DNA of 43,995 nucleotides from Herpetosiphonaceae bacterium (GTDB lineage: Bacteria; Chloroflexota; Chloroflexia; Chloroflexales; Herpetosiphonaceae). Positions 10,371 through 30,698 of the stretch are shown here, piece by piece; within the stretch, counting starts at the first letter, position 1, and each line of letters opens with the position of its first letter. The notes beneath the pieces were generated by a model. It searched no databases. It saw nothing but the letters and a program-made list of their open reading frames with translations, and was not told where the DNA came from. The stretch is from assembly GCA_013538855.1 (NCBI GenBank), contig JABXJS010000233.1, positions 1 through 43,995 on the forward strand, in the 5' to 3' direction. A program made the translations under genes and the position numbers.

Positions 10371-12008
10371 TTAGCCGCGCAGGTAGCGGTGCACGAAGGC
10401 CACCGCCATCGACCCCTCGCCCACCGCCGAGGCCACGCGCTTCACCGAGCTAGCGCGCACATCGCCAGCGGCAAAAATGCCCGGCTGGCTCGTCTCCAGC
10501 ATGTAGGGCGCGCGCTCTAGCCGCCACACGCCGCGCTCCTGCAGCTCTTGGCCGGTGACGATAAAGCCGTGCTCGTCGGTGACGATCTCCTTGGGCAGCC
10601 AGTCGGTGTGCGGGTCGGCACCGATAAAGACAAACAGTGCGCCCACCGCCACCTGCTCCTCGGCATCGCTCGCTGTGTCGTGCAGCGTCACCGTCTCCAG
10701 ATGCTCGTCGCCGTCCATGGCGCTGACCTCGGTGTGCAGGCAGACCTGAATGTTATCGGTCTGCTCGATCCGCGCCAGCAGATAGCTCGACATGCTCGCG
10801 GCCAGGCTGTCGCCGCGCACCACTAGCCGCACTGCGCGCGCATGATCGGAGAGAAAGATCGCCGCCTGGCCCGCCGAGTTGCCGCCGCCAACCACCACCA
10901 CCTCAGACTCATCGCACATCTGCGCCTCGACCAGCGTGGCCGCATAGTGCACGCCGCGATCCTCGAACTCGCGGCAGCGGTCGATATCAAGGCGACGGTA
11001 GGCCGCTCCGGTCGCGATCAGCACGCAGCGGGCCAGCACCTCGCTGCCATCGTCAAGCTGCACCAGCGGATAGCCGGCGCTGAGCTGCATCCCGACCACG
11101 CGCACTGGCGATGTGAGCACCGCGCCAAACTTCTGCGCCTGCACCATCGCCCGCTCGGCTAGCTCGCTGCCGGATAGGCCCATCGGAAAGCCCATGTAGT
11201 TCTCGATCTTGGAGGAGGAGCTGGCCTGGCCGCCAGGCGCAAACTGCTCCAGCACCGCCGTGTCCAGGCCCTCCGAGGCTCCGTACACCGCCGCTGCCAG
11301 GCCCGCTGGCCCCGCGCCAATAATCACCAGATCGTACACGCTGTGCTCCAGCGGCTGCTTGATGCCGAGGCACTCGCCTAGCTCCTGGTTCGTTGGCTGA
11401 CGCAGCACGGTGTTGCTTGGGCAGACCACCAGCGGCAGCTCGCGCGGCGTGACCGCAAAGTGCTTGAGCAGGTCCGCCAGATCAGCGCGCTGCTCAACAT
11501 CAACCCACGTGAAGGGCACGCGGTTCTTGCTCAGAAACTCGCGAATGCGCGTGGTGTCCGCCGAGTAGCGCGAGCCAAGCACCTGCACGCCAACAAAGCC
11601 GCTCGCTTCCAGTAGCCGCCGCCGGGCGATAAAGGCGCGCAGCAGCTTCTCGCCCAGCGTTGGGTCGGCGCTGACGATATGGCGCAGCTCCTCCGCCGTC
11701 ACGACATAGACCTCGCAGGTGCCGCGCGCCACCGCCGTCGCCACCGCCGGGCGGCCAGTGAGCATGGCGATGTCGCCGGTGAACTCGCCTGCGTGGTGCA
11801 CGGTCAGCTCGCGCTCAGCGCCGGAGGTATCCTCGACAATCGCCACTGCGCCCTGCTTCACAACAAAAAACTTAAAATCGGTGTCGCCGGCGGCGAACAG
11901 GGTTGCGCCGTCAGGAAAGTTGCAGATCGTCGCTACGTCGTCGATGGTGTCAATTTCAGCCTCGGTCAGGGTGGGGTAGGCCACCGCAGAAAGATCGGTT
12001 GCGTTCAT
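10371..12008 (-). CDS. Cyclic-nucleotide-binding domain fused to thioredoxin-reductase-like flavoprotein
   Basis: A 545-residue three-part protein. Residues about 15-135 form a CAP/cNMP-type sensor (GEFTGDIAMLTGRPAVATA). Residues about 140-215 form a thioredoxin/glutaredoxin-like fold without a CxxC (GSRYSADTTRIREFL). Residues about 225-545 form an FAD/NAD(P)H oxidoreductase of the TrxB family, with IIGAGPAGLAAAVYG for FAD, VVVGGGNSAGQAA for NADPH and a C-terminal GIFAAGDVR. The reductase CxxC expected just before the NADPH motif is absent (the region reads YAATLVEAQMC). Disulfide reduction by the usual route is therefore unlikely, and automatic names calling it thioredoxin reductase should be treated with caution. 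AAGGAG lies upstream. It follows selD by 70 bases on the same strand. Confidence 0.88.
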   Translation of the reverse strand: MNATDLSAVAYPTLTEAEIDTIDDVATICNFPDGATLFAAGDTDFKFFVVKQGAVAIVEDTSGAERELTVHHAGEFTGDIAMLTGRPAVATAVARGTCEVYVVTAEELRHIVSADPTLGEKLLRAFIARRRLLEASGFVGVQVLGSRYSADTTRIREFLSKNRVPFTWVDVEQRADLADLLKHFAVTPRELPLVVCPSNTVLRQPTNQELGECLGIKQPLEHSVYDLVIIGAGPAGLAAAVYGASEGLDTAVLEQFAPGGQASSSSKIENYMGFPMGLSGSELAERAMVQAQKFGAVLTSPVRVVGMQLSAGYPLVQLDDGSEVLARCVLIATGAAYRRLDIDRCREFEDRGVHYAATLVEAQMCDESEVVVVGGGNSAGQAAIFLSDHARAVRLVVRGDSLAASMSSYLLARIEQTDNIQVCLHTEVSAMDGDEHLETVTLHDTASDAEEQVAVGALFVFIGADPHTDWLPKEIVTDEHGFIVTGQELQERGVWRLERAPYMLETSQPGIFAAGDVRASSVKRVASAVGEGSMAVAFVHRYLRG

Positions 12009-12078: not shown

Positions 12079-13119
12079 CTAGGGCGCTAGCTCGATCCCG
12101 CTGCCGTCTACAACCGTGCCAATGCGCCAGCACGCTTGGTCCACAGCCGCATAGCGCGCCTCCAGCGTAGCGGCGTCGGCGGCACTAAGCGCCAGCAGCA
12201 GCCCGCCGGATGTTTGGGGATCACAGATCAGCAGCTCGATCGTGGCCTCAACAGCGGGGTCGCGGCGGATGCTAGCGGCCAGAAAATCGTGGTTGCTGTG
12301 CAGGCCGCCGGGCATAATGTTAGCGCGGGCATACTCGAGTGCGCCAGGCAGCCAGGGCAGCTGGCTGGCATAGAAGCGCAGCCCCACGCCACTGTTGCGG
12401 GCGAGTTCGGCGGCGTGGCCAGCCAGGCCAAAGCCGGTGATGTCGGTGGCGCTGTGCACCGCTAGGCCGTGCGCCTCCTCGGCCGCCACGCGGTTCAGGC
12501 GCAGCATGCTAGCGATGGCCGCGTCCAGATGGGCCTGGTCGCCCTCGCGGCGCTTGATCGCGGTGGTGATCACGCCGGTGCCCAGCGGCTTGGTCAGCAG
12601 CAGCACATCGCCGGGGTGGGCGTTGGCCTTGGGCGTCAACTGATCGGGATGCACCATGCCGGTGACACACAGGCCGTACTTTGGCTCGCGGTCGACCACG
12701 GTATGGCCGCCACACAGCACGGCCCCAGCCTCGTGCACCTTGTCCGCGCCGCCCTGCAAAATCGCGGCGACGATCGCGGTCGGCAGGTCGCTCGGGAAGC
12801 CAGCAATCGCCAGCGCCAGCAGCGGCTGCCCGCCCATAGCGTAGACATCGCTCAGCGCGTTGGCCGCTGCAATCGCGCCAAAAATGTACGGATCATCGAC
12901 AATCGGCGGGAAGAAGTCCACCGTTTGCACCAGCGCCTGCTCGGCGTTGAGGCGGTAGACGGCGGCATCATCGCTCACGTCCAAGCCGATCATCAGGTTT
13001 GGATGGCCCTGCATACGGACTGCTTGCAACATCGTGGTTAGGGCACCCGGCCCTAGCTTCGATGCTCAGCCAGCACATGCGGCCAAGTCCGTCAGGCGAA
13101 TCTCGTCGCGGTTCTGCAC
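12079..13119 (-). CDS. selD: Selenophosphate synthetase containing selenocysteine (UGA at 13066-13068)
   Basis: A 346-residue enzyme that makes selenophosphate from selenide and ATP, the Se donor for selenocysteine and Se-modified tRNA. The plain open frame starts at 13032 (MLQAVRMQ) and lacks the catalytic N-terminus. Reading the same frame upstream gives GTG at 13119, preceded by GAGGAGG. The peptide then runs RLTDLAACAG, a TGA codon, ASKLGPGALTTMLQ, matching the family's LTxx...GAGCGCK region. The TGA falls on the catalytic Cys (Cys17 in E. coli SelD; residue 18 here), and a SECIS-like hairpin follows. The remaining motifs are present: DDAAVY, QTVDFFPPIVDDPYIFGAIA, ANALSDVYAMGG, LCGGHT, TDITGFGLAGHA and CDPQTSGGLLLA. 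The gene lies upstream of the cNMP/flavoprotein gene. Confidence 0.93.
13030..13065 (-). promoter_or_regulatory. Bacterial SECIS element in selD
   Basis: Directly after the TGA, on the minus strand, CATCG pairs with CGATG (13060-13064 with 13030-13034), then a 4x4 internal loop, then TAGGGC pairs with GCCCTA (13050-13055 with 13039-13044) around a 5-base loop CGGGT. Sixteen bases separate the TGA from the apical loop, which carries GGGU. This fits the known bacterial SECIS layout (hairpin inside the coding region just 3' of UGA, G-rich apical loop bound by SelB). Confidence 0.8.
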
Positions 13120-28594: not shown

Positions 28595-29354
28595 GCGTTG
28601 ACCCACAGCCGTGCAGCCGCAGCTCAACCAAGCCCACACAGCTACGCGGCACGCCAAATCTGCCCAGCGACGCCGCACCAGCCGAGCGCATTGACCGCGC
28701 TCATGCCAGCGCACGCTGCTACGCCGCGCCAGCTTACTACGTTGACCGCGCTCACGCCAGCGCACGCTGCTACGCGCTGCGGCGAATCTGCCCAGCGACC
28801 ACGCGCCAGTCCAGCGCGTTGACCGCGCCGTGCAGCCACTGACCACGCTCATGCGATCTGCTACGCGGCGCGCCGAAGCTGCGCCGTGGCGATGCGCCAG
28901 CCGAGCAGGCTGAGCAGGCGCGCTGACCCAGCCGTGCAGCCGCAGCTCAACCAAGCCCACACAGCTACGCGGCACGCCGAATCTGCCCAGCGACCACGCG
29001 CCAGCTTACTACGTTGACCGCGCCCACGCCAGCGCGTGCAGCCATGCGGCGCGGCAAATCTGCACCAGTGACGCCGCGCCAGCCGAGGTGTTGACCGCGC
29101 CGTGCAGCCACTGACCACGCTCGTGCGATCTGCTACGCGGCGCGCCGAAGCTGTGCAGCGGCCACGCGCCAGTCCAGCGCGTTGACCACGCCGTACAATC
29201 GCAGCGCACGCCTGTGCACGCTGCTACGCAGCGCGGCGAATCTACCCAGCGACGCCGCGCCAGCCGAGCGCGTTGACCGCGCTCATGCCAGCGCACGCTG
29301 CTACGCGCTGCGGCAAACTCACCGTACAATCGCAGCCCACGCCAGCGCGTGCTG
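28595..29354 (-). repeat. Degenerate array of copies of the YndJ-like gene's 3' end
   Basis: On the plus strand a module of roughly 75-105 bases recurs: GCTACG, then a variant of GCGGCGAATCTGCCCAGCGA, then GCGCCAG, then TTGACCGCG. The TTGACC or CTGACC anchor occurs at 28599, 28691, 28742, 28819, 28923, 29014, 29091, 29182 and 29273. The same module, in the same orientation, forms the last codons and stop of the gene at 29355-30323 (anchor 29428). Longer blocks also recur, for example around 28611 and 28934 (offset 323) and around 28831 and 29103 (offset 272). Read on the minus strand, several copies keep residues such as AVNALGWRG and AGQIRRA. Confidence 0.75.
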
Positions 29355-30323: not shown

Positions 30324-30339
30324 AATGCAAGCTCCTTGT

Positions 30340-30698
30340 GCGCCAGCGGCGCGTGTGGCGCTACGGTCTAGAGCAGCAACACAGCGAGCGCTGCCCATGC
30401 GCGCAGCAGGCAAGGCGGGTAGAGCAGATTTGCGACAGCTGCGCGTGTGACGCTACGCTCTAGAGCAGCGACACAGCGAGCGCTGCCCATGCGCGCAGCA
30501 GGCAAGGCGAGTAGACCAGATTTGCGCCAGCGGCGTGTGGCGCTACGCTCTAGAGCGGCGACACAGCGAGCGCTGCCCATGCGCGCAGCAGGCAAGGCGA
30601 GTAGAGCAGATTTGCGCCAGCTGTGTGTGGCGCTACGCTCTAGAGCGGCGACACAGCGAGCGCTGCCCATGCGCGCAGCAGGCAAGGTGGGTAGAGCA
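30340..30698 (-). repeat. Four-copy 90-bp tandem repeat upstream of the YndJ-like gene
   Basis: The unit anchor CGCTACGCTCTAGAGC (first copy CGCTACGGTCTAGAGC) begins at 30359, 30451, 30541 and 30631, giving periods of 92, 90 and 90 bases. Units 2 and 3 differ at four positions. Each holds the palindrome GCTCTAGAGC (GGTCTAGAGC in copy 1). On the minus strand the frame stays open through the array and encodes a 30-residue repeat containing MGSARCVAALERSAT, but without a ribosome binding site. No unique spacers are present, so it is not a CRISPR array. The rest of 30324-30803 shows no gene. Confidence 0.9.

What the first reader, a model, noticed from the sequence alone, without database searches (positions are those of the whole stretch)
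12079..13119. SelD is itself a selenoprotein: in-frame UGA at the catalytic position hides 29 N-terminal codons
Seen: upstream of the apparent ATG at 13032 the same frame continues through TGA (13066-13068) to a GTG at 13119 that has a GAGGAGG site. The peptide on both sides of the TGA matches the SelD catalytic region, with Sec at the position of E. coli Cys17. Known: SelD proteins often carry Sec or Cys at this residue. Inference: standard gene calling truncates this gene and removes the active site. The second Cys of the E. coli motif is Ser here.
Basis: partly seen in the sequence, partly recalled or inferred. Interest (0 to 1): 0.85.

Follow-up and report, generated by a model that had tools for sequence, protein, structure and literature searches.

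The report
SelD enzyme containing encoded selenocysteine
The gene for SelD, the enzyme that activates selenium for making selenocysteine, has a UGA "stop" codon at its catalytic position that is almost certainly read as selenocysteine; this is a well-known kind of selenoprotein that plain gene calling cuts short, here with an unusually close and tightly conserved RNA signal behind the codon.

Summary
On the minus strand the selD frame runs from GTG 13119 (GAGGAGG at 13130-13124), through TGA 13068-13066, to the stop ending at 12079. The TGA falls exactly on the catalytic Sec/Cys of SelD. The extension adds 25-27 bits to SelD profile scores, 59 of 60 readable order relatives keep the TGA (one has Cys), and nearly all start at the same codon. 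The internal Met is not conserved.

(1) The SECIS: a short hairpin, UAGGGC-CGGGU-GCCCUA, whose loop begins 16 nt after UGA. It shows strongly suppressed synonymous variation and a compensatory stem change that alters the protein (Ala to Val). This proximal type characterises one SelD clade; most other relatives carry a different, distal hairpin. (2) selA and full-length selB are in the genome, ybbB is not, and selC was not found by four methods. The assembly is demonstrably incomplete (both tuf genes are broken at contig ends), so I read this as a gap. No other UGA-read-through gene appeared in the families tested or in a 1.56 Mb scan (about a quarter of the genome).

Verdict: a genuine Sec-SelD, a new member of a well-described family; modest interest.

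The parts
12079..13119 (-). selD, selenide water dikinase (selenophosphate synthetase), 346 aa with Sec at residue 18
   Evidence: TIGR00476 378.5 bits, Pfam AIRS and AIRS_C
13117..13119 (-). GTG start codon
   Evidence: relatives have ATG (sometimes GTG) at the aligned codon
13124..13130 (-). GAGGAGG ribosome-binding site
   Evidence: read directly
13066..13068 (-). TGA read as selenocysteine (aligned with E. coli Cys17)
   Evidence: TGA in 59 of 60 readable order loci, TGC in one
13039..13055 (-). SECIS upper hairpin UAGGGC-CGGGU-GCCCUA, loop starts 16 nt after UGA
   Evidence: fold; synonymous constraint and compensatory change
13025..13068 (-). extended SECIS, lower stem formed with the UGA strand
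   Evidence: single-sequence fold, -18.1 kcal/mol, z -1.8; lower stem not tested by covariation
13030..13032 (-). internal ATG that a naive caller would use as start
   Evidence: not conserved

Best explanation
This is selenophosphate synthetase (SelD) that is itself a selenoprotein. Translation starts at GTG 13119. At UGA 13068-13066, a SelB-Sec-tRNA-GTP complex recruited by the SECIS hairpin just downstream inserts selenocysteine instead of stopping. The Sec then serves as the catalytic nucleophile that, with Lys21, handles selenide, and ATP is used to make selenophosphate, the selenium donor SelA needs. Shown here: the frame, the conserved UGA, the start, the constrained SECIS, and selA and selB in the genome. 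Inferred from established biochemistry of the family: actual Sec insertion, catalysis, and a selC that lies in an assembly gap.
For: Profile gain of 25-27 bits from the part upstream of the internal Met. Alignment through the catalytic motif with solved SelDs. UGA at the same codon in 59 of 60 readable order loci and 70 of 76 outside. Hairpin codons almost frozen (CCG 49/49, GGG 49/55, GCC 40/50) while neighbouring codons use nearly all synonyms; stem pair 15-23 changes from G-C to A-U with a protein change GPGA to GPGV; the genus-g3 sequences form the same hairpin in a shifted register. The element fits the published bSECIS rules (loop 3-9 nt, G in the first two loop positions, 16-37 nt spacing; PMC13188914). 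selA and selB with SelB-wing_2 and SelB-wing_3 present. TGA is otherwise an ordinary stop here (160 of 668 open frames of at least 350 codons).
Against: No tRNA-Sec gene was found in this assembly with Rfam RF01852, a relative's selC by BLAST, a conserved pattern, or a model built from 25 relatives' selC. The energy of the short hairpin region alone is not unusual against shuffles (z -0.29). There are no expression data.
Confidence: 0.95

Rival explanations
1. The TGA is a real stop and a shorter SelD is made from the internal ATG at 13032 (317 aa).
For: That ORF is open and still scores 351 bits as SelD.
Against: The Met is replaced by V, L, I or T in 54 of 60 loci. No Shine-Dalgarno-like sequence is seen before it. 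Upstream codons are conserved at protein level with free synonymous variation, so they are translated. The product would lack the catalytic Sec and Lys.
Confidence: 0.02
2. The TGA is a sequencing error or a nonsense mutation (pseudogene) of a Cys-type SelD.
For: The only Cys form in the order (L041) differs from TGA by one base.
Against: The same TGA is in 59 of 60 order loci and in other phyla, with a constrained SECIS behind it.
Confidence: 0.01
3. UGA is read through, but this organism lacks tRNA-Sec, so another residue is inserted or the gene is a relic of a lost Sec trait.
For: selC was not found by several methods; no other selenoprotein was detected.
Against: selA and selB are intact. 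The selD frame and SECIS show no decay. The assembly lacks the body of EF-Tu, and both tuf starts sit at contig ends, so genes are demonstrably missing. Most relatives have selC.
Confidence: 0.02
4. The gene is a Sec-SelD, but the hairpin at 13055-13039 is not its SECIS; the real signal is elsewhere and the GPGAL codons are conserved for protein reasons only. (This concerns the signal, not the main reading.)
For: GPGAL is also conserved as protein; most other SelDs use a hairpin further downstream.
Against: Protein conservation cannot explain CCG 49/49 or the synonymous constraint confined to the hairpin codons, nor the paired change GGAC/GTCC. The distal hairpin is absent from the window sequence and from the other proximal-type order members.
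Confidence: 0.08

Closest known systems
Sec-containing selenophosphate synthetase SelD (Aquifex aeolicus type; solved structures 2yye/2zod; that the native Aquifex enzyme has Sec is from my own knowledge)
   Same: Sec/Cys in a G-[UC]-A-x-K motif at the N-terminal loop, AIRS plus AIRS_C domains, similarity over the full length.
   Different: Ser, not Ala, two residues after Sec; SECIS hairpin of a proximal type.
E. coli SelD (Cys17, solved structure 3u0o)
   Same: Same family and catalytic position; alignment E-value 5.6e-70.
   Different: Cys instead of Sec; second Cys of E. coli is Ser here; no UGA.
Bacterial SECIS elements (bSECIS model, PMC13188914)
   Same: 5-nt apical loop with G in second place, 6-bp upper stem, 16-nt spacing, all inside the published limits.
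   Different: At the minimum allowed spacing; distinct from the distal GCAGGUUCUGC hairpin found in most SelD relatives outside this order.

Membership tests
SelD / selenide, water dikinase | Full-length match to the curated SelD equivalog model | tested here: met
   TIGR00476 378.5 bits against cut-off 125; NF002098 342 against 299
SelD / selenide, water dikinase | Catalytic Cys/Sec and Lys in the N-terminal motif | tested here: met
   U18 and K21 align with E. coli Cys17 and Lys20
SelD / selenide, water dikinase | Enzyme activity: selenide plus ATP to selenophosphate | not testable with these tools
   needs an assay
Selenoprotein (Sec-UGA) gene | In-frame UGA conserved among homologues and aligned with Cys in others | tested here: met
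   UGA in 59 of 60 order loci; Cys codon in L041, L119, L141, L149, L155, L158, L174
Selenoprotein (Sec-UGA) gene | bSECIS element downstream | tested here: met
   hairpin within published limits, synonymous constraint, compensatory change
Selenoprotein (Sec-UGA) gene | selA and selB in the genome | tested here: met
Selenoprotein (Sec-UGA) gene | selC (tRNA-Sec) in the genome | tested here: inconclusive
   not found but the assembly lacks other essential sequence; present in most relatives
Selenoprotein (Sec-UGA) gene | Sec physically present in the protein | not testable with these tools
   needs 75Se labelling or mass spectrometry
Selenouridine trait (ybbB/SelU) as a user of SelD's product | ybbB gene in the genome | tested here: not met
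   only a 21-bit partial match against cut-off 219.75
Se-cofactor trait (yqeB plus yqeC) | YqeC homologue in the genome | tested here: not met
   no match to E. coli YqeC in the composite query; yqeB itself not tested

The most novel reading that the evidence does not exclude
SelD is the only selenoprotein of this bacterium, and no other selenium trait uses its product, so the whole Sec machinery (selA, selB, selC, selD) exists to make the Sec of its own supply enzyme; decoding uses a lineage-specific proximal SECIS that replaced the distal one once in the ancestor of this SelD clade.
Probability: 0.12. Interest if true: 0.55.

Novelty: new member of a known kind. Interest (0 to 1): 0.27.

Why it matters
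As a gene it is an annotation correction: a naive call removes the catalytic Sec and Lys while the protein is still named SelD. The more useful part is the comparative set of about 130 SelDs with two alternative SECIS hairpins. It gives a natural experiment on which RNA features SelB needs, including a genus in which one species went Sec to Cys (L041) and its loop changed from CGGG to CAGG. If SelD proved to be the sole selenoprotein, this lineage would be a clean test of why a cell keeps the Sec machinery at all; Zhang et al. 2006 (PMC1794560) discuss SelD as a single selenoprotein in several species that also have YbbB, which this genome lacks.

Tried and rejected
selC: Rfam RF01852 in own genome, a same-family relative's selC by BLAST, a degenerate pattern, a covariance model from 25 relatives' selC over the genome and over 1.56 Mb directly. 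The candidates examined with ARAGORN were ordinary tRNAs; one unassigned tRNA with a four-base anticodon (gctg) and weak sub-20-bit hits were not followed. I thought selC might sit next to tuf as in G043 (L089); the two broken tuf starts (contigs C77, C188) have no selC upstream, so that placement is not supported. Operon idea: the neighbouring cNMP-binding/thioredoxin-reductase gene and the copC/copD gene are not next to selD in relatives, so no functional link is claimed. My first scan settings were too strict and missed selD itself; they were relaxed with selD as the positive control, so that filter is tuned to selD-like genes. An alternative genetic code was rejected: TGA ends 160 of 668 long open frames.

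Full report
WHAT IS THERE. The window is a whole 43,995-base contig (C192) of a 6.34 Mb, 285-contig assembly rated 100% complete and 0.29% contaminated. Its SelD groups with SelDs of its own order, and its nearest named hits are mostly Chloroflexota and Thermomicrobiota, so I take it for a Chloroflexota bacterium (inference). On the minus strand, selD begins at GTG 13119 after GAGGAGG (13130-13124), meets TGA at 13068-13066, and ends with a stop at 12079.

IS IT MORE THAN CHANCE. The truncated ORF from ATG 13032 scores 351.0 bits with the SelD model, the extended protein 378.5. The extension aligns with E. coli and Aquifex SelD through the catalytic loop, with the UGA on E. coli Cys17, Lys21 on Lys20 and Ser20 on Cys19. 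In the 82 genomes of the order, every complete SelD except one has an in-frame TGA; among 60 loci with a readable motif 59 have TGA and one, L041 in genome G028, has TGC. Of 76 further readable loci from named genomes outside the order, 70 have TGA and six have Cys codons. In a mechanical scan of 14,422 in-frame TGA contexts in 1.56 Mb of this genome, four passed coding-potential and hairpin filters: selD and three that look like adjacent genes or chance; the filters had been relaxed with selD as positive control.

THE START. Relatives begin at the aligned codon, usually ATG. The internal Met is V, L, I or T in 54 of 60. Codons before the UGA vary freely at synonymous sites while the protein is conserved, so they are translated.

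THE SECIS. The strand after the UGA folds into UAGGGC-CGGGU-GCCCUA (13055-13039), loop starting 16 nt after the UGA, and the longer segment forms a lower stem reaching back to the UGA (-18.1 kcal/mol, z -1.8; the upper hairpin region alone is not unusual against shuffles, z -0.29). It satisfies the published bacterial SECIS limits, at the minimum spacing (PMC13188914). In 55 distinct order sequences with the proximal element, the codons under the stem are almost frozen: GGG 49 of 55, CCG 49 of 49, GCC 40 of 50, whereas flanking codons use nearly all synonyms. Stem pair 15-23 changes from G-C to A-U in five sequences, all from the f4 family, altering Ala to Val in the protein; the six genus-g3 sequences form the same hairpin in a register shifted by one. 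The pairing support is therefore real but rests on few independent events. That this element is the SECIS is my inference; no reporter exists.

TWO KINDS OF SECIS. Most SelDs outside the order carry a different hairpin about 30 nt downstream with the loop region GCAGGUUCUGC (48 distal, 4 with both, 15 other, 2 proximal, 6 Cys), while the order has 51 proximal plus its one Cys form and 4 distal (classes assigned by sequence patterns written after looking at the data). On a SelD protein tree the 52 order members with the proximal element form one clade, with the four distal ones branching outside it (SH-aLRT 97 and 95). With the SECIS-coding part of the protein removed, two label changes are needed and only one is forced by well-supported branches. 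So the proximal element probably arose once in this clade; two Clostridiales MAGs (L112, L123) have it separately. In the one Sec-to-Cys species (L041) the stem survives but the loop CGGG has become CAGG, one case only. I found no description of this in the papers searched, but the library is incomplete.

THE MACHINERY. selA is intact (C24, 534 bits, Pfam SelA). selB is full length with both SelB winged-helix domains (C234). ybbB is absent and YqeC was not found. selC was not found with the Rfam model, a relative's gene, a pattern, or a model built from 25 relatives' selC, although most relatives have a clear tRNA-Sec. The assembly is demonstrably incomplete despite its rating: EF-Tu is represented only by its first codons at the ends of contigs C77 and C188. 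An assembly gap is the simplest explanation, but it is inference.

OTHER SELENOPROTEINS. Homologues of formate-dehydrogenase-like molybdoenzymes, thioredoxin, peroxiredoxin, MsrA and HesB/ErpA-type proteins are present without any TGA, and the scan of a quarter of the genome found nothing convincing beyond selD. SelD as sole selenoprotein is thus possible but not shown; short proteins, Sec near a terminus and three quarters of the genome were not covered.

MECHANISM AND PLACE AMONG KNOWN SYSTEMS. SelB bound to the hairpin delivers Sec-tRNA to the UGA; Sec18 with Lys21 then makes SelD active for selenophosphate synthesis (established for the family, not tested here). [quoted passage not shown] The finding is therefore a correct and useful gene correction of a known kind.

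Noticed in passing
window 10371-12008 (-): Gene downstream of selD encodes a cyclic-nucleotide-binding domain fused to a thioredoxin-reductase-like oxidoreductase; it is not next to selD in relatives.
   Followed up: partly
window 30339-30698 and 29075-29282: Arrays of about 90-91 bp tandem repeats (4.0 copies at 93% match, and 2.3 copies at 75%) in a stretch with only spurious-looking ORFs.
   Followed up: no
G049 loci L023 and L258: One relative carries two different Sec-type selD genes on separate contigs, which are sisters in the tree.
   Followed up: no
L041 (G028): Sec-to-Cys SelD inside a genus whose other members keep UGA; SECIS stem retained, loop CGGG changed to CAGG, and selC still present.
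   Followed up: partly
L112, L123 (Clostridiales MAGs): Same proximal GGGCCGGGTGCCC element as the window's order, although their SelDs are distant in the tree.
   Followed up: no
G000 contigs C77:3-68 and C188:23891-23956: Both tuf (EF-Tu) genes are cut at contig ends near their start; the gene body is missing from an assembly rated 100% complete.
   Followed up: yes
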